A stretch of 64,000 nt of DNA, from the NCBI RefSeq assembly GCF_025698545.1, contig NC_068577.1, forward strand, positions 1,426,001 to 1,490,000, given 5' to 3'. The position numbers were made by a program, and so were the translations under genes. The notes under the pieces are model-generated. The model did no database searches, was not told the origin of the DNA, and saw only the letters and a list, made by a program, of their open reading frames with translations. Each line of letters starts with the position of its first letter. The first letter of the stretch is position 1. The stretch is from Gossypium raimondii. Its lineage: Eukaryota; Streptophyta; Magnoliopsida; Malvales; Malvaceae. Shown here in pieces: positions 10,169-62,930 of the stretch.

Positions 10169-10350
10169 GGTAAAAGTACCATGGAGACTCTTGTACTAGG
10201 AGTTAGATTGCATTTTATCCCCTCTACTAAAAATATGGACAAATTAGTTCTTATACATTTGATCAAAGAGCAAATTAGTCATTCTGTTAAAAATTACATC
10301 CATTGCTACTGTTAAAAACTGGTTCATGTACGTCAAAATGAGGCATTGAA
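10169..10350. mobile_element. Partial copy of the GGTAAAAGTACC MITE family
   Basis: Starts GGTAAAAGTACCATGGAGAC and carries the family's left half (GCATTTTATCCCCTCTACT, then CAAATTAG and CTGTTAAAAACTGG). The right half is absent. Fuller copies are at 33189-33517, 42541-42864 and 49859-50282. Confidence 0.6.
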
Positions 10351-27157: not shown

Positions 27158-27166
27158 TATAATTAT

Positions 27167-27511
27167 GGGAGGATCCACTTACACCGCTGTAAAATTTAAG
27201 TGGTTTTACACTCTTCGTAATTTTTGTATGTTTAATATTTTAACAATCCAACTATTATATTTCATGCTTTAATCATGTAGATAATGCATGTCAAGTTTGA
27301 CATAAATTAAAATTTTCTAACATTTATTTTTCTTAATAATTTTTACTCTTAAATATTAAACATATAAATATTAAATATTAGATTTATATGTATGACACGC
27401 ATAAAAATTTTGATAAATTTAACGGTTGGATTGTTAAAATATTAAACATATAAAAGTTACGAAAAAGTGTTAAACTACTTAAGTTTTACATTGGTGTAAG
27501 CGATTCCTCTC
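27167..27511. mobile_element. MULE-type MITE, 345 bp, with 9-bp TSD
   Basis: Terminal inverted repeats of about 100 bases: the left begins GGGAGGATCCACTTACACC and the reverse complement of the right begins GAGAGGAATCGCTTACACC. Both continue into TATGTTTAATATTTTAACAA. It is flanked by the 9-base direct repeat TATAATTAT (27158-27166 and 27512-27520), the duplication size of Mutator-like elements. It has no coding capacity. It lies inside another repeat-like AT-rich block. Confidence 0.88.
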
Positions 27512-27520
27512 TATAATTAT

Positions 27521-32583: not shown

Positions 32584-34027
32584 ATGGAAGCTTTAGCTAA
32601 AGAACCTGAAGGGGTAGTGGTAATCATCGACATTGATGGAGAAGAAGAACCAGCAAACCAGACAGACAACGAGGAGCAGCAACAAGGGACCAACAGCAGC
32701 AGGTGTTCGTCGTCTTGTTCGAATGAAGCAAAATCTGGGACAAGTGAGATCATAAAGGAGAGGGGATCTTCAGTGTCGGATACTAGTTGTTCTTCTTCTT
32801 CCTTAGAAGTGGATCTGGAAGCTGAGGTGGTGACTGAAACCAAGCTGCATTTGGACAATGTGGAGAGGGATTGTCGGATTTGTCATCTCAGCTTGGATCC
32901 AAGTAACCAAGAATGTGATTTGCCTATTGAGTTGGGGTGTTCTTGTAAAGATGATTTAGCTGCTGCTCATAAACAGTGTGCTGAAGCCTGGTTCAAAATT
33001 AAGGGAAACAGGTAAAACATTTTTTATTGTTTTGAGCTATTATTGTCTTATTTTGGTATGTACTGTAAGAAATGTGGGTGAATCTTTGTTGTAGCCATTG
33101 CATTATAGATTGGTATATGCTAGGAAGAACTTGGTAAATTTGCCGGTTTTTGAGAAAGGGTCCTCATTGGATTTATTCTGAATATGCTGTAAATACTGAG
33201 TTTCAAATTGCATTTTGCTCACTATTCTTAAACAATGAGCAAATTAATCTTTGTGGATTAGGTCGAAGAGCAAACTAGTTCTTTTTGTTAAAAAATTCGT
33301 TCATTTCTATTGTTAAAATCTGTCATCGTTGACAAAATAACAAAATAATAGCACGTGATGTGTTATGTTACATCTCGTGCTGACATACATTTTTTAACAA
33401 AAAGGATTAATTTACTCTTTGATTTAACGTACATAGATCAATTTATCCTATTTTTTAGTAGAAGGGGCAAAATGCAATCTTACACTTAATATAGGTGCCT
33501 TGATGGTACTTTTTACGCTGAATATGCTCTGCCATGTTGATCATTCTCTTGCAACACCTTTGCAAGGCCTCCTTACTGTGTTTCGGTTTTCTAGTTAAGC
33601 TGGATCAAGGCGTAAGCGGCTAATACACGGCAGATCGTATCGTGTTATTTATGTTGTTCTTGTTGCAGGCATAAGCAGTTAAATATCAGACATGAACTGA
33701 TTTGTATGTTTTACCTAGCATATGTCTTGGTCTATTGATTCTCCTACTGATTTGCATGTTACAATGCCTTTTTCCCCCAGAATATGTGAGATTTGTGGAT
33801 CCACTGCTCGCAACGTTGCTTGCATGAACGAGACCGAGATGATGGAGCAATGGAATGATTCGAATGATTCCATAGCTGTGGCGGCAGCAGCGGCAGTTCC
33901 TGTCGGGACTCGTGGTGCAGACTCGAGAAACTTCTGGCAGGGTCATCGGTTTCTAAATTTCCTACTAGCTTGTATGGTCTTTGCCTTTGTAATCTCTTGG
34001 CTCTTTCACTTTAATATACCATCATGA
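32584..34027 (+). CDS. RING-CH (RINGv, MARCH-like) zinc finger membrane protein, 2 exons, 224 aa
   Basis: Probable membrane-bound E3 ubiquitin ligase. Exons are 32584-33011 and 33781-34027, with a GT-AG junction at phase 2. An acidic, Ser-rich N-terminus (1-90) precedes a C4HC3 RING-CH finger. Its ligands are C97 and C100 (RDCRICHL), C119 and C121 (LGCSCKDD), H129 and C132 (AHKQCAEAWF, with the conserved Trp at 136), and C145 and C148 (ICEICGS), encoded across the intron. One C-terminal membrane helix spans about 200-218 (FLNFLLACMVFAFVISWLF), six residues before the stop. Single-helix plant RINGv proteins of this size are common; the substrate is unknown. The intron contains a MITE (33189-33517). 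Confidence 0.92.
33189..33517. mobile_element. MITE of the GGTAAAAGTACC family in the RING-CH intron
   Basis: The right end reads GATGGTACTTTTTACG, the inverse of the family's left terminus. The interior has the family blocks CAAATTAATC and TTTTTAACAAAAAGGA and the end block GGGGCAAAATGCAATCT. It is flanked by the direct repeat CTGAATATGCT (33178-33188 and 33518-33528), a Mutator-like duplication length. Confidence 0.75.
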
Positions 34028-40350: not shown

Positions 40351-43408
<3,058 letters not shown>

Positions 43409-47277: not shown

Positions 47278-50200
47278 ATGGCTATGTCAACCAAAGCTAT
47301 CAATCTTGCTAGTTTTAGCTCAGTTTTTCCTTCTTCACTTGATAAGCTAAACAAGCCATCAAAGGGTGTCCAAAACAGTTTCTGGGTACCAAGAATTCCA
47401 CTGGTTAAAGCAGTTCAAAGCCCAGCTGAATCAGATACTGGCAGATGGGCAAAACAAAGACGCCCCCAGAATGCAGATGGTGACTTCTTTGTAGGTATAT
47501 ATCATAGTTTCCCATAAAATTACTTCTTTGTAGGTATATATCATGGTTCCCCCAGAATTAGATAAGTTCTTTGCTTGAAGGGCTATTAATCTTTTCCCTT
47601 TCCCATGTTGGATGATAACTTCTCTAATTGTTTTTCCCCACAGAATTTTATATTGCTTTTTAATACATGTTGCAGATCATACATGCATAGATTGCGATAC
47701 TTGTCGCTGGATGGCACCGGTAATCTATTAAGCTTGTATTTATATTACTGTGAACTATTTTGAGCATATGAATGTTAGTTTACTGTTGGTAATACCAGGA
47801 ATGGAAAACAAATCTATTGCATGTGCTTTCTTGAATATAAATTTCAATGGTATGGTTTAGAAAATAAATAATGGGAAAAGATGGTTCATCAAATATTTCA
47901 CTTCCTTTGTTCATTGAGAACTCATTTTGTATTAAAATCATCTCTTAAGGAATGGATATTATGTTTAACTCTTAATACTTGTGCTGGTTCACAGATTGAC
48001 TTGAAATGGTGAGAAATGGTACACTTAGGTTGAGAATAATGGCAGGCATCACGGACGCTTTGCTACTAATTTGCGAAGTTTGTATAGGCTATGAAAGTTC
48101 GGATCGGCTTCCTAGCGTACGGAATACGGAATGGATTCCAAAGCCCCTCTGTTTTTTTTTATACTAACGGCATCGATTCCTAGTGCTATAACAGAAACTG
48201 CCCTTAACGCGCAAATGAAAGCCCTCACAACACTTATGGTAGTAGATAAACGGATGAACATGTATATCAATGGTATAATCATTTCATTATGTAGTGGAAT
48301 CATTTCATTATGTAGTGGACTTTGCTTTGTGTATCCCTTTCCAGTGTAGTAGTAGGATGCTCATGTAGTGCAGACCACTGGCTCAGAATTATCAACTATG
48401 ATGTCGGTCAAGATCTTAGAAACTATTCTACTTTTAAGGCTTTTTATTTCTTGCTTTTGCAGCAAGTCTTCACACGAGCCGGTGGGATGTCTGCAGTTTA
48501 CAAACAGCCAACCTGCAAGCAGGATCGATTAAAAGCCCTCCAGGTTTACTTATTTCGTGTATTGTCATCGGTTAGAAGATGATATTTTCCTCTTATAGCA
48601 ATTGCCCCTAGCTTGCAATATAATTGTTCAAATTTGCAGGCCTTGCTTTCATGTCCAACAAACTCGATCCGTACAGAAGTGCCTCCTCCTGATATCCTAG
48701 AAGCTCAGAAGACATTTCCGATCCCAATAGACGAGAAGAAACTTCCAGTAACTCCTTACTGTACCTTCATTTTAGAATATCGTTTGACAGACTGTATAGC
48801 TAATATGATTATATTTTCAGGGTGTTTATCACTGTGGGTATCATTCTTCTAAGTCATATGGAGCTTCTTCCTACTTGATCATTCATCCTGATGGAAATAT
48901 ACTTATAGATAGGTACAAATCTGTTTTCGGGTAAAAGATGTGGGAACAATAAAGCTTCTACATATTAATTTGAGCTAACTTGGTTGTAATAAGTTTTTGC
49001 AGCCCCAAATTCACAGAGAGACTTGCACGTAAGATCGAGGAGTTAGGGGGAGTATGCTATATGTTTCTAACCCACAAGTATGTTAGCAGAAATTTTTTTC
49101 ATCTTTCTGTTCATTTATAGGTTTCTGATCCATGTTTTTATGATCAGGGATGATGTTGCAGATCATGGGAAGTGGTCAAAGCGGTTTAGTTGCAATCGGA
49201 TTCTGCATTCTGGAGATGTAAGTGACGTATCATTACATCTGATATGGTCTATATCATAAACTTATACTTGCTTTGGTCCTTTTGATGTTCTTAACTCCAT
49301 TTGCAGATTCTTGAGTACATACTTTTAACGCTATAGCGTATAGTGTTCTCTGCAATATAACCTTCATGCCGTAAATGAAAGTTACTGCATATCCTAATTC
49401 GATTGTCGAGTTCTAGTTGGATAGTACTTGTATCATTTATCTCTGCAGGTAGAAGCATGTACAGCTGATGTAGAAACGAAGCTAGACGGCAATGGCCCGT
49501 GGAGACTTGGACAAGATATTATGCTTATACATACTCCTGGCCATACAGAAGTGAGTTGTTAATCTAATGTATACAAGAAAATTGTCAGCAATTATAGCTT
49601 CATCATCGCTTGACAACAATAGCACTGAAAAATAGCTCATAATTGAACATTTTCTGAAATGTTGCAGGGTTCTGTTTGCTTGTTTTATATGCCACTTAAG
49701 ATTCTATTCACTGGTGACCATCTACTGATGAGAGAATCCGGGTTGGACATAGTAGCTATGTACAATAGATATTCAGGTAAAGCCTATATTTCTTGGTTTT
49801 TTCAAGCTTTTGAGATGATCGTATCTTCATGCTAATGTCTGGATGTTTGAATACAGAAGTAAAAGTATCATGGAAGCTCATATATTAGGAACTGGGTTAT
49901 ATTTTGCCTATTTTAATAGCAGAAATGGACAGATTTTTTTAAAAGAAGGGATGAGCTTGCTTTTTGATATAGCTTAATGGGATTAAATTTTCATTTCTGA
50001 ATAACCAGACGGCTATATGGGCAATTTTATCAATATATATTAAATCAGAGAGTAAACTAGTCTTTCAGTTAAAAATTTTATCTTTTTTTTACTGTTAAAA
50101 TATGGTCCTTGTACGTCAGAATCTGTCAGCCACACTTGTTTTTAACAATGGAAATGGATGAAATTTTTAATAGAATAACCAGTTTGCTCTTTGATCTAAT

Positions 50201-50867
50201 ATGGAGTGACTAATTTGCTACTTTTTCAGTAGAGGGAGCAAATTACAATTGGCTTTTTAGTACAAAAGCCTCTGCAGTACTTAAATATGAATATTTTGGA
50301 AAAAATGAATAGTCGAAGAAACATAGGGTAAACCTATATGAATATACTATTATCAAGGATATCATGTTTATGGAGCTAGTGTTTCTAATAGTTATTTGAT
50401 TTGTTTTTTCATCATTTACCCAAACCCGGGAAATTTTCATTTTCATTTAAGCTCTTTAAATCTTTTAAAATTTTAAATTAGTAAGGGTAAAATTGCACTT
50501 TAGCTCCCTAAAAATAATAAAAATTTGATTTAATCCTTTAAAATTTATAAAGATAGAGGCTATTAAAATTGTGAAATTACATGCTCACCATGTTGTTTTT
50601 CACAGTTGGTACGCAACTGGATAGCGTTAAAAGGCTCTTAGATTTGGATTTCAATTGGATAATACCAGGTTGGTGTTAGTTCAATATCATTACCGTTTTC
50701 GCATTCTATCGTGATTAATGGCTGATATAATGTGGAAAGCTTGACATGTATTTACAGGCCATGGTAGGAGAATCGAGTTCAAAGATGTTGGGGAGAAGAA
50801 TGCAGTTCTTGAAGCTTTTGTTGAGGAAAAGTACGCCCACTATTCCTCGGTCAAGAATAAATGGTAG
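47278..50867 (+). CDS. Ferredoxin-like plus metallo-beta-lactamase-fold protein, probably plastid, 11 exons, 356 aa
   Basis: Plant hydrolase-fold protein of the At4g33540 type. Exons are 47278-47494, 47676-47719, 48463-48543, 48640-48747, 48821-48912, 49003-49077, 49148-49217, 49449-49550, 49668-49776, 50606-50668 and 50758-50867, all GT-AG in phase. Residues 1-50 are Ser-rich and poor in acidic residues, as in a plastid transit peptide. A ferredoxin-like [4Fe-4S] motif follows: CIDCDTC (C76, C79, C82) with SCPT (C119). The metallo-beta-lactamase domain shows FLTHKDDVADH (H205, D211, H212), HTPGHTEGS (H261), FTGDH (D280) and PGHGR (H322). The first metal motif is longer than the usual HxHxDH. 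Substrate is unknown. Intron 9 holds a MITE; exon 1's donor is duplicated downstream. Confidence 0.93.
47483..47552 (+). repeat. Tandem duplication spanning a splice donor
   Basis: ACTTCTTTGTAGGTATATAT occurs at 47483 and again at 47522, a 39-base period, with the following 11 bases also similar. Each copy contains a GTAG|GTATAT donor. Confidence 0.85.
49859..50282. mobile_element. MITE of the GGTAAAAGTACC family in intron 9
   Basis: Left end GTAAAAGTATCATGGAAGC, then inverted partners TGTTAAAATATGGTCC and GTTTTTAACAATGGAAATGG, and AGTAGAGGGAGCAAATTAC near the right end. It is longer than the 324-bp copy, with extra sequence near 49930-50030. Ends are approximate on the right. Confidence 0.65.
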
Positions 50868-51562: not shown

Positions 51563-52190
51563 CCTAAAACCTTAAGTAACATCTCATAAATTTGAGAAAC
51601 GAAAATGGAGCAAGGAATACCTCTCAAAGGTTGATATACAATGATTCAAGCTAAGTAAAAAAAATGACTACACTTGAAATAACGAAAGAGACTGAAATCC
51701 CTAGTGTGTACAAAAATAAGATGAGAATTACAAATGAAAGATTAGATTTTTGCACAATAAGCTTTGCAAATTTGTTTCGTGTCCTCTTCTTGATGTTCTT
51801 GAACTCTATTTATACCCCTCAATGGTTTCTATCAACTTGAAGTAGTTAGAGGGAAAATTTAGCTGTTGAAGACATTTACTCGAACATAAAATGTAGTTGC
51901 AGAGACTTTTGTTATGATACACTATTTAAAATATATGATCGTTCAAGTCTTAGGTACTAGACCCTAAGGCTCATGTTCCAATACCTCTATGTTGGGGTTT
52001 GATACTCCTGAATTCTCTCGTAAAACAATTTTGCTTGCCAATGAGGCAAAGGCCTGATACATAGCCATATGTATCCATACTTAGGTCAAAGGGTGAGACA
52101 CCTCTGAAGTTAGTAGCTTATAGACTTCATGTGTTCTGATACTCTTAATAAGTGTATCAGAACACACCCCAAGCTTTGTCAAAATTTACT
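51563..52190 (-). repeat. Dispersed repeat, copy A (LTR-like, promoter on minus strand)
   Basis: Aligns along its length, in the same orientation, with 62345-62930 (shared blocks include GGAATACCTCTCAAAGGTTG and TTTTTGCACAATAAGCTTTG, and AAGCTTTGTCAAAATTTACT at the end). The minus strand has TATAAATA (51807-51814) followed by a transcript-like leader, suggesting a retroelement LTR. Internal parts are not adjacent. Confidence 0.6.
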
Positions 52191-54346
52191 TTGAAAGGGT
52201 TTTTTCGGAGCTTTTAACACTTATAAAACTTTCTAAGCGTTTAAACAACTTTGAAAATTTACTTCAAATAATTTCACAAAAGTTTAACAAAATTTGATTA
52301 AGAAAATATTTTGTTATACCAAAACATTTGAAAATCAAAGCTAATATGTTACGTAAAGAATGAGAAAGAGATAGGGAAGAAAAGAAAATATAATGAGAAA
52401 TATTTGTATTGGTGTTTATATAATTATCCCAAATATTTGCGTAAAACGAATTATTAACATGTAAAATTATATAAATTTCAATACACATTAAAATTAACAT
52501 AAACACATGTGTTTATTCGTTTTATGTATATATTGATGAATTTAAGTTTTTTAATGTGTTTGAATAGATATATATTGTCGAAACCTTTTTGGAAGTTGAC
52601 TTTTATTTTAAAAATGATAATAGAGTTGCCACCAATCCTTTTTATTAGGTGTGATCGGATCACCTCGTAATTTGATTATTTTAATAAAAGTTTAGATTTA
52701 TTAAAACGATGATTTTCGGTTCACAAAGAAACTTAGGAAATGGATTCGAGAGTCGGTTAAGCACGAGGAAGGATTAGCACCCTCGTAACACCCAAAATTG
52801 GTACTTAGTTGATTAATTGATGTCTTAATGTCGAGAATTAAAATTTTGAATAGAATTTAAAACATGATCCCACATTGCATTAAAATCACTCAAGTAAATT
52901 AAACATATGTAAAATGTCTTCTCATCTCGAGGTAAACAAAAATGTTTCGTCCCATAAGTTAGGACACGACGTTTCGAATACTCAAAAATAAGCTTGCTCA
53001 TTATTTGATTATTAGTTAAACCTCAAGTGTTTTAGTTTTAAAAGGGATGTTCGGTTATTTAGATTCAAGGAGAAAGTCGAACCCCGTAAGTTACGACTTT
53101 CTCAATCTCCAAATACGGAACATCGCCTTAATTTTAAAATTTCCTTCATCGAGTAATAACAGATGTAATATTTAAAACAATGTGTATTTATCTTATTTGG
53201 GTATAGTACAGCAATGGATAAATATATCTAAACACGATCCGTGACATGATTATAGTGAAATAAAATGATATGGTGATGTATAAAATGGAATGATGATATA
53301 CGTAAAATAAAAATGTCGTGCTAGTAAATGAAAATAATATAAATATAATAATAAAACCAATTCATAATAATAATGGCGATAATCATGTTATATTTACTAC
53401 TCTAATACTAATGTAAAAATCAAAGAAAAATAAATAATAACAATAATAATAATAGTAACAAAATGTGCAAATAAAAGAATAAAGAACAATATAAATTTTA
53501 AATACAAAAGAGTAAATAAATAAATAAATTTCATGAAAGATTGAAATTAAATAAACCAAGGACCGAATCAGAATTAAAATGAAATTAAAAGTATAAATTT
53601 TGATAAAATAAGTACATAAAAGACTAAAATGAAAAACGCGAAAACAAACAAGGACCAAATGAGAAATTATCCTAATCCTCAGGACACGCGTCCTTTCTCC
53701 AGAAGATCGCGAACCGAGAACCTAATTGTAAGCAGGATAAAATTGAATGGTATAATTTCTAAAAAGAAAGAATAGTGAAATTAGGACTAAATTAAAACAA
53801 CTCAAAAGGCGGAAGGACTAAAATTGTAAATATCCCCACACAAAAAAGCGGATCCTAGGGATACTCGGGTCGGGTCGTCGGATCCTGTCTCAAAACGATG
53901 CTGTTTTGGGGCGTTTAAGGCTTGGATGAAACGGCACCGTTTCACTGGGCCGACAATCCCCCACGATGGCCACCGGTCGCCGGCAACGGGCTCTTCTGTT
54001 CCCGGTCGCCGGAAAACACAAAACGACCCCCATTTTGAGCGTTTCAGCTCCTAAAAACCAGATCTTGTGTTGGTGTTTCCTAAAACTCGACGAAAAATAA
54101 AAAATAAAAAAATTCGAGAGTCCCTTTAGTATCTCCGCCGTTTCACTGAAGGGAGCTATCCGTCATCGGGGACGGTGTCCCCGTCCACTCGCGGCAGTGG
54201 AACATGATTCGACACTGTGAGTTTCTGATTTCTTTTTTCATTTTATGTTTTTTTTAAAAACAACAGATAAAAAAATCACCTTTGAAATTTTTAGCAGTCT
54301 GGTTTCTGATTTCTTCTCTATGTATTTTGAAATTTTTTTGTATTTC

Positions 54347-57162: not shown

Positions 57163-57811
57163 ATTTCTCTGTCTAAAATACAATCTATTGTCATGGCTTT
57201 TATAGCCATATATTACACTATTTATTAATTTTTCTGATTTGATATTGTTTCTGCTGCTTCTTGTCCTTTCGTTCTTTCCGTTTTTGCAGGTGACGGTGGA
57301 GTCAACGACGAGCAGAAACCCCTGCCTTTTCCGTTTTGGTGCAATGGCGACAGTGGCGCTTCAGGCCTCGGGACGAGGAGCCTCGAGCGACATGCAAGCG
57401 AAGGGGGTGCAGTGCCAGAAATTAGTTTAAAGTTTTTGGGCCATTGGGCCCTTTCTTTTTTTGTAATTGGTATTTGTAATTGGGCCAATTTGTAAATGAA
57501 CTGTTATTTATTTGATTTTGTTTTATTATTTTCCCGGGCAAAATTGGGCTCCTATATATATATTTACACACTAATAATTGGTTTTATGCATGCCTTTCGA
57601 ATATGTGTTATTGTCATGTTATTTTTAATATGGTGTTTTAATTATTTATCTATGTTATTTTCTTTTGAAATCTTAATTTCTTATTTTCAATAGTTTGTTT
57701 GTCTAATTCAATCAAAAGGAAATTTGTATTTTCATGTATTTTTGTGTTGTGATTCAATTCATGAGATAATATTTGATTTGAGTGACATGACGTATTCATG
57801 TAAAATTTAAT

Positions 57812-59160
57812 TTTAATAAGACTTTTTTATATAAAATTAACCTCAAAAAATTAATTACTTACTTAAATGACCTATTTTTTAATAAAATACGTAAATAGCT
57901 TAAAATCTATAGTAAAAGTTGGTAGAGCGAAAGTGTTTGGCGCCACCAACATGCCACGTCAGCAATTACTGAACATCGTAAATATTTTGAGAATCGAAAC
58001 TGCCATTCTGCCCATTTCGTCGAAATAAACAAGACGCATTCTATCATAACTCGTTCCTGCCAAGAACAAAAGTGCAGCACCGATAAAGCCATGGGATATT
58101 ATTTGTAAAATAACTCCGTTGAGTCATGTATTAGTTATCGAACCAATTCTTATAATTATGAAACCCATATGAGATACGGAGGAATAGGCTATTCTTTTTT
58201 TAAAATTCTGTTGACCAAAAGATATTGAAGCTGCATAGATTATTTGCATTGCACCCACTATTATCAACCAAGAAGAAAATATGGAATGTGCATGGGGTAA
58301 TAGAGATAAAAAAAATTATTTTTTTAGTGGAGCTATATAGAATGACGCCACATGTATAAATATTAGGGAAATATTATAATTTTTTGAAAATAGAAGAGCT
58401 TTAAACAAATTTTCCTTTTTCTGGTGGAGCCAACCTTTAGTCTTTATTCTAGTTTTTTATTTGTTTATTTTTTTAAAATTGTTTATTATTTATTTTATAA
58501 TATTTTTAATGTATATTTTAAATATTTTATAATATATTTTTATTCAAACGCTTTTTTTATTTTTAAATTATTTATTATTTGTTTTATAATATTTGTTTAT
58601 TCAAACATTTTTGAATATTTATTTTTAATTGTTTATTATTTATTTTATAATATTTTTATTCAAATGATTTTAAAAATATTATATTTAAAATTAACAATAA
58701 TATTTTATTTAGAAAATATTATAAAACATTTAAAATATAAAACAAATAGTAAACAATATAAAAATTTCAAAAATTGTTTAAATAAACAAATATTATAAAA
58801 CATTTAAAGTATACATTTAAAATATTATAAAATAAATAATAAACAATTTTCAAAAACAAATAAAACCAAAAAAGGACAAAAGTACGTTGGAAGTGGTGCC
58901 GAATTTATTTAAAGCCTCCTATTTTTTAAAAATTCGTAGTATTCTTTTAATATTTATACAGTAGCGTTATTCTATATGGCTCCACTAAAAGATTAATTTT
59001 TTTATCTCGATTGTAACATGATATATTAGTAGCGCCAAACACTTTGACTCCACAAATTTTTACTGTTGAATTTAAATTATTTACATATTTTATTTAAAAA
59101 TAAGTCATTTACATAATTAATGGTTTTAGGTTAGTTTTATAAGAAAACCTTTTAATAATA
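57812..59160. mobile_element. Long-inverted-repeat (foldback-like) element carrying plastid DNA
   Basis: The left arm from about 57812 and the reverse complement of the right arm ending at about 59160 align over roughly 450 bases. Shared blocks include AAGTGTTTGGCGCC(A/T)AC, TTAGTGGAGC(T/C)ATATAGAAT and GTATAAATATTA. The inner part is made of diverged TTTATTATTTATTTTATAATA units on the left and their complements on the right, closing near 58670. It has no coding capacity of its own. The left arm holds a 336-base ndhD segment absent from the right arm. Outer ends are within about 10 bases; no duplication was confirmed. Confidence 0.72.
57967..58302 (-). pseudogene. ndhD: Plastid ndhD fragment inside the foldback element (NUPT)
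   Basis: The minus strand translates as an internal part of plastid NADH dehydrogenase-like subunit NdhD. It reads [57 protein letters not shown], then [38 protein letters not shown] and ends KIFTMFS, all in one frame, with an in-frame TGA between the SIT and LNG blocks. The order matches intact NdhD over about 110 codons with few changes, so the transfer is younger than the psaA piece. It is an isolated fragment without start, stop or promoter and cannot encode the subunit. Confidence 0.9.
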
Positions 59161-60047
59161 TATTAGGGAGCCGCCATATTACATCACTAAATTTTAAAAT
59201 TAAAAAATTCAACAAAATCGAAGTAGTCTTTGATTTAGAATCGTAGACGGCATGAAAAGTCAATAGAAGCCACAATTGACAATTCAGTGGGGGTTGGAAT
59301 TAGATTTTCAATTAAGTTTTTTTAATTTCAAAATATTATAAAAGTAAATTTAATAAAAATTATTACATAATTAGAATTAAATTTTAAAATTAAAAGATAA
59401 TAAAATTAAAATTTTAAAATAAATATTAAATATTAAACTTATAACAACTTACGACATATTTTAATATTTAATTTTAAAAATTCGACTTAAATTAATCTTT
59501 GATTTTGACAATTAACAAATAGAGTAGAGTTGGAATTAGAATTGTATACTTCTTTATCTTGGAATGAGATATATAAAATCAAAATACTTTAGCAAATAAA
59601 ATAATCTGATAATAAGTACAATAATTGGAGTTGGAATTGTATGCTTCAATTGGAATATTTTGATTATATTTTTGTTTTTAATATGATATTTAGAATTATT
59701 CAATTTATAAATAGAAGAATAATATATTTCAAATACTTGAATTTACGTATTTATAATAACAATACTCTTATCAAATGAATTAAGACTAAATCATTAAGTA
59801 TGTATTTAAATGCAATAGCGGTTTGTGAAATGGAAAATAAATTTTAACATTCATTCACGTAGATTTTAGAATAATATTTTGATGTGGATTTAATGTATTA
59901 TTAGTGAATATTTTATACCTAATAACAAACTTAACATGTAACAATAATGTAGATGTAACTTTATTTTGCCACAAACAACATTAACACAACTTTTTTCTAG
60001 GATACTTCTTTCTTTTTTTTTTACCAGAAAGCCATTCCCACGTAAAC
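59161..60047. other. Gene-free AT-rich stretch
   Basis: No gene or clear repeat. 60000-60047 is the likely 3' UTR of the glycosyltransferase on the minus strand. Confidence 0.4.
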
Positions 60048-62344: not shown

Positions 62345-62930
62345 TCTGTCTAAAATCTTAAGTAACCACTTATAAAATTGAGAAATGAAAACGGAACGAG
62401 GAATACCTCTCAAAGGTTGATATTCAAGGCCATTCAAATAAATTACAACACTTGAAATAATGAAAAAGAATGAAACCCCGAGTGTGTATAAAAATAAGAT
62501 GAGACTTTCAAATGAAAGATTGAATTTTTGCACAATAAGCTTTGTAAACTTGTTTCTTGTCTTATTCTTGATGTTCTTGAACTCTATTTATATCATCTCA
62601 AATGATTTCTAGCCTTTTGAAGTAGTCAGAGGGAAAATTGAGCCATTGACAATATTTACTCGGCATAAAATGTAGTTGCAGGGGCTTATGTTTTGGTATA
62701 TGTAGTTCCAATACCTCTATATTGGGGTTTGGTACTCCTAAATTCTCACAAAACAATTTTGCTTGACATGTACATGACCAAAGAAGGCAGAGGCCCGATA
62801 CATAGTCATATGTATCGGCAATTAGGCCAAGGAGTTTGATACTTTGAAGTCAGTAGCTTATAGATTTAATGTGTTTTGATACCCTTAATAATGCATCGGA
62901 ATACACCTTAAGCTTTGTCAAAATTTACTT
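62345..62930 (-). repeat. Dispersed repeat, copy B (LTR-like)
   Basis: Same-orientation copy of 51563-52190, ending directly against the LTR that begins near 62931. Differences from copy A include several small insertions and deletions, so the two are not a recent duplication. Confidence 0.6.

What the first reader, a model, noticed from the sequence alone, without database searches (positions are those of the whole stretch)
57967..58302. Plastid ndhD fragment sits in only one arm of an inverted-repeat element
About 110 codons of NdhD read nearly intact on the minus strand. The flanking left-arm sequence matches the right arm on both sides of the fragment (…TTTGGCGCC and then AGATAAAAA…TTAGTGGAGC), while the right arm runs straight through without it. 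Either plastid DNA landed in the arm after the inverted structure formed, or an element acquired it asymmetrically. Plastid DNA carried inside a potentially mobile non-autonomous element is unusual and would offer a route for spreading organelle sequence.
Basis: partly seen in the sequence, partly recalled or inferred. Interest (0 to 1): 0.78.

Follow-up and report, generated by a model that had tools for sequence, protein, structure and literature searches.

The report
Old chloroplast fragment inside nuclear transposon
A decayed 336-base piece of the chloroplast gene ndhD sits in one arm of an old hairpin-like, possibly mobile element in what is probably a cotton nuclear chromosome; it looks like an ordinary insertion of organelle DNA at a repaired break, and nothing found here suggests that the element has spread it.

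Summary
Window 57967-58302 (minus strand) matches ndhD of two plant-plastid contigs found as contaminants in bacterial assemblies, over 336 bases without a gap (85.7% and 82.7% identical), with one in-frame stop. It lies in the left arm of an inverted-repeat element that I place at 57820-59149. Leaving it out restores alignment to the right arm, with one right-arm base unmatched at the junction, so the right arm is a built-in empty site. An exact 9-base repeat flanks the whole element, compatible with a Mutator-like foldback element, but 361 of 19664 AT-rich pairs do as well. Estimated nuclear decay of the fragment (0.046 per site, interval -0.012 to 0.096) is below per-arm divergence (0.10, 0.071-0.138; fragment lower in 0.97 of bootstraps): the plastid DNA probably landed after the inverted element formed. 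Best explanation: an ordinary NUPT, captured as filler in end-joining repair inside an old element. The 'route for spreading organelle sequence' has no support: no other copy was found in the window and no host genome is held. Low interest.

The parts
57967..58302 (-). NUPT: 336-bp fragment of plastid ndhD, 111 full codons (about codons 269-379, numbering anchored on the recalled editing codon S293), one in-frame TGA, no indels
57820..57966 (+). outer part of the left arm of the inverted element
   Evidence: aligns to the reverse complement of 59012-59149: 27 differences at 138 sites, 9 gap columns; controls
58303..58660 (+). inner part of the left arm, continuing directly after the plastid fragment
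   Evidence: aligns to the reverse complement of about 58700-59011: 46 differences at 304 sites, 62 gap columns; controls
58700..59149 (-). right arm without the plastid fragment (empty-site reference)
57811..57819 (+). left copy of a 9-base direct repeat, candidate target-site duplication of the whole element
   Evidence: 361 of 19664 AT-rich pairs have a 9-base match as good
59150..59158 (+). right copy of the 9-base direct repeat

Best explanation
An old non-autonomous foldback element, most like Mutator-like (MULE) elements, came to lie here. Later a short piece of plastid DNA was used as filler when a double-strand break in its left arm was repaired by end joining, giving a one-armed NUPT that has decayed as a pseudogene since. 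It most likely does nothing now. Shown: plastid origin, presence in one arm only, near-exact empty site in the other arm, no sizeable duplication and no long plastid homology at the junctions. Inferred: end joining as the mechanism, DNA rather than RNA as the intermediate, the order of events, the MULE affiliation, the lack of function, and cotton as the host.
For: Plastid homology begins and ends sharply at 57967 and 58302. Joined flanks against the right arm: 11 differences at 78 aligned sites, 10 of them transitions, one right-arm base unmatched at the junction. Reading by eye: at the left junction the base before the plastid match differs between window and plastid; at the right junction AAT is shared between the plastid end and the empty site, so microhomology or fill-in of up to about 3 bases is possible. 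NUPT integration by end joining, with 1-7 bp of microhomology or blunt, is described in PMC7037861 (passages). Decay 0.046 per site (-0.012 to 0.096) against 0.10 per arm (0.071-0.138), fragment lower in 0.97 of paired bootstraps. Codon S293, the editing site ndhDeU878SL, is still TCA in the fragment as in both plastid DNAs; in PMC5992886 (passages) G. arboreum and G. raimondii are in the sample and not in the list of taxa that lost this site, so cotton transcripts are expected to be edited there and an RNA origin would have shown T.
Against: The two intervals overlap; they rest on two distant plastids, not the host's, and on equal rates. The per-arm value pools 241 sites and leaves out the AT-rich innermost part; with the whole inner arm K2P is 0.171, or 0.085 per arm, nearer to the fragment. 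The joined empty site has another single-base gap a few bases left of the junction and one in an A run, so it is near-exact, not exact. The mutation spectrum is only mildly of the deamination type: 15 of 32 differences are C>T or G>A, 7 are the reverse transitions, 10 transversions, at 300 sites where both plastids agree. Codon P296 reads TTT where the plastids have CCT and CCC, which could include an edit, so the editing evidence is not clean.
Confidence: 0.82

Rival explanations
1. The element acquired the ndhD piece in its own transposition history (Pack-MULE-like capture) and has moved or multiplied with it.
For: Inverted-repeat form and a 9-base flanking repeat. Pack-type elements capture and shuffle host coding DNA (PMC8903248, start of abstract and passages).
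Against: The piece lies inside one arm, whereas captured sequence in Pack-MULEs lies between the arms (recalled). No second copy was found in the window. The fragment appears younger than the arm divergence. The words chloroplast, plastid and organell do not occur in the main text of PMC8903248.
Confidence: 0.07
2. Both arms once carried the fragment and the right arm lost it by deletion or gene conversion.
For: Nothing direct; the upper bound of the fragment's decay (0.096) lies inside the arm interval.
Against: The right arm reads through with only one extra base at the junction; a deletion would have to be almost exact, or a conversion from an empty copy would be needed.
Confidence: 0.05
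3. The fragment reached the nucleus by way of the mitochondrial genome. This could still end in end joining as above.
For: Cotton mitochondrial genomes hold plastid DNA (PMC6852956 abstract) and some nuclear plastid-like fragments also match the mitochondrion (PMC3989485 passages).
Against: No mitochondrial sequence was recognised next to the fragment, but this was not searched for; the host mitochondrial genome is not held.
Confidence: 0.06

Closest known systems
NUPTs, including those of Gossypium (PMC6852956, outline and section 7 part 1 of 2)
   Same: Short decayed plastid fragment in nuclear DNA, sharp ends, almost no target DNA lost; nuclear copies of nearly all plastid genes are reported in cotton, ndhD being listed as absent in G. 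raimondii but not in the other three species
   Different: Lies in one arm of an inverted-repeat element, so the other arm records the site before insertion
Non-autonomous long-TIR or foldback Mutator-like elements of plants (PMC3310237, PMC4486113: search listing with start of abstract only)
   Same: Long inverted arms, no ORF of 150 or more codons inside, 9-base flanking direct repeat
   Different: No second copy, no link to a known TIR family or transposase shown here; membership open

Membership tests
NUPT | Collinear nucleotide similarity to plastid DNA beyond chance | tested here: met
   288/336 and 278/336 identical, no gaps, E 2e-109 and 8e-96
NUPT | Lies in nuclear DNA | tested here: met
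   Both flanks are element sequence matched by the other arm; the window has miR393 and MIR7502 precursors (MIR7502 only just over threshold, 71.8 against 71) and O-FucT, lectin and UDPGT ORFs
NUPT | End-joining type junctions | tested here: met
   Joined flanks against right arm: one base unmatched at the junction, no long homology
Mutator-like element | Target-site duplication of about 9 bases (recalled definition) | tested here: inconclusive
   Exact 9-base repeat at paired ends; 361 of 19664 AT-rich pairs as good; ends chosen by inspection
Mutator-like element | Terminal inverted repeats | tested here: met
   Outer arms 111 of 138 aligned sites identical, above all 500 shuffles and all 500 random pairs
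Mutator-like element | TIR or transposase relationship to a known MULE | not testable with these tools
   No host genome held; no TIR library on hand
Pack-MULE | Captured host sequence between the TIRs (recalled definition) | tested here: not met
   The segment interrupts one arm, with arm sequence on both sides
Pack-MULE | Segment present in several transposed copies | tested here: inconclusive
   None in the window; genome not available

The most novel reading that the evidence does not exclude
The element stayed mobile after gaining the plastid segment and has carried ndhD-derived DNA to further nuclear sites, a transposon vector for organelle sequence.
Probability: 0.04. Interest if true: 0.5.

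Novelty: new member of a known kind. Interest (0 to 1): 0.12.

Why it matters
[quoted passage not shown] If copies of the element carrying ndhD were found elsewhere, it would show a transposon spreading organelle DNA; nothing found here suggests that.

Tried and rejected
Host genome search: none held. NdhD stretch against viral contigs: 17 stretches matched a pattern, none confirmed. Element motifs against viral contigs: 0 matches. Degenerate ndhD DNA pattern: 0 in viral contigs, 2 in bacterial genome contigs, both read as plant plastid contamination. Further copies of the element in the window: with the low-complexity filter on, only the element against its own arms; with it off, many AT-rich matches (best E 2e-8 outside 57780-59450), which I took as low complexity. 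RNA-mediated transfer: disfavoured by unedited S293, but P296 is not clean. Hairpin: predicted with and without the fragment (z -23.7 and -28.8 against 20 mononucleotide shuffles each); this fits a foldback element and says nothing about function.

Literature on plastid DNA inside transposons: searches (20 of 192 listed; 12 of 550; 5 of 5; 12 of 13; 15 of 29) listed no paper that I recognised, from titles and starts of abstracts, as describing plastid DNA inside a MULE or foldback element. Most of these lists were cut, so this is no proof of absence. Read: PMC6852956 outline with abstract and section 7 part 1 of 2; PMC3989485 passages and section 13; passages only of PMC5992886, PMC7037861, PMC8903248, PMC12572781 and PMC11110229. 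Others were seen in listings only.

Full report
What is there. Read on the minus strand, 57951-58309 gives an NdhD-like frame with one internal TGA before it runs into element sequence. The peptide matches chloroplast NdhD chains of solved complexes (E 3.8e-53) and the Proton_antipo_M family (E 6e-18). For nucleotides, a degenerate pattern for a plant NdhD peptide found two contigs in the bacterial genome collection. Their ORFs and Pfam matches look like the ccsA-ndhD-psaC-ndh region of plant plastids (gene order recalled), so I read them as plant contamination and use them as plastid references (7.2 and 8.0 kb held). The window matches both from exactly 57967 to 58302 without a gap, 288/336 and 278/336 identical; at E 1e-4 this is the only place in the window that matches either of them.

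The element. 57820-57966 and 58303 to about 58660 align in order to the reverse complement of 59149 to about 58700, with the plastid piece looped out. The arms score far above dinucleotide shuffles and random window pairs. An exact 9-base direct repeat lies immediately outside both ends, 57811-57819 and 59150-59158. Of 19664 pairs of AT-rich 60-mers from the window, 361 had a 9-base match as good within 3 bases of symmetric ends; I chose the ends by inspection, so this is suggestive only. A 9-base duplication fits Mutator-like elements (general knowledge). The window has four ORFs of 150 or more codons, none inside the element; three match non-transposon families and one matches nothing. Shorter ORFs and exons were not examined.

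The junctions. The joined flanks differ from the right arm at 11 of 78 aligned sites, 10 of them transitions; one right-arm base has no partner at the insertion point, and two more single-base gaps lie nearby. There is no duplication of more than about three bases, and plastid homology does not continue past the ends. This is what end-joining repair with plastid filler DNA is said to leave (PMC7037861 passages).

Timing. With two plastid references, codon positions 1+2 against 3 separate plastid-lineage change from nuclear decay. Decay comes out at 0.046 per site (bootstrap -0.012 to 0.096). Arm divergence pooled over 241 sites, without the AT-rich innermost part, gives 0.10 per arm (0.071-0.138). 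The fragment is lower in 0.97 of paired bootstraps. With the whole inner arm counted, that arm gives 0.085 (K2P 0.171), so the gap narrows. Equal rates are assumed. This is moderate evidence for insertion after the arms had begun to diverge. Third positions hold 30 of 48 differences from L002 and 41 of 58 from L001, and at sites where both plastids agree 18 of 83 third positions differ against 14 of 217 others (Fisher p 0.0005). Much of the divergence from these references was therefore gained under coding constraint in the plastid, before transfer.

DNA or RNA. Codon S293, the editing site ndhDeU878SL, is unedited TCA in the fragment. PMC5992886 (passages) samples G. arboreum and G. raimondii and does not list them among the losses of this site, so edited cotton transcripts should carry T. 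P296 reads TTT where the plastids have CCT and CCC, which could be an edit, a plastid-encoded T or decay. DNA transfer is favoured; actual cotton editing data were not read.

Host. Precursors of miR393 and MIR7502 reach Rfam's gathering scores, the latter only just. 14 papers hold both miR7502 and Gossypium, 6 listed. Cotton NUPTs are documented; nuclear ndhD is listed as absent in G. raimondii and not in the other three species (PMC6852956 section 7, part 1).

Meaning. TEs are enriched around NUPTs in Arabidopsis and maize, not significantly in rice (PMC3989485 section 13). Across 30 species NUPTs are nearer than expected to DNA transposons in 3 and farther in 22 (PMC12572781 passages). A NUPT in one arm of an old DNA element is thus not the commonest setting, yet it needs nothing beyond a break repaired with plastid DNA at a site under little constraint. 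The claim of a spreading route needs other copies; none was found in the window and the genome could not be searched.

Noticed in passing
window 40967-41110 (MIR7502), with about 10169-10339, 33193-33513, 40866-41167, 42541-42836, 50015-50273: The MIR7502 Rfam match lies inside one of five diverged copies of a short element whose copies match each other in both orientations; this cotton microRNA family may derive from a MITE.
   Followed up: partly
window 57937-59053: 8 of 17 window matches (up to 1 mismatch, both strands) to GTGGMGCCA lie in the 1.33-kb element. The motif was picked after seeing the element, and two of the 8 overlap as a palindrome; possible subterminal motif repeats, untested.
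   Followed up: partly
window 27159-27520: A second inverted-repeat structure, 72% identical to its own reverse complement over 381 columns.
   Followed up: no
L001 1-7234 and L002 1-8000: Apparent plant plastid DNA filed in bacterial assemblies: an uncultured Lactobacillus MAG and Solirubrobacter sp. CPCC 204708.
   Followed up: partly
window 51564-52191 and 62350-62930: Direct repeat, 75% identical over 643 columns, not examined.
   Followed up: no
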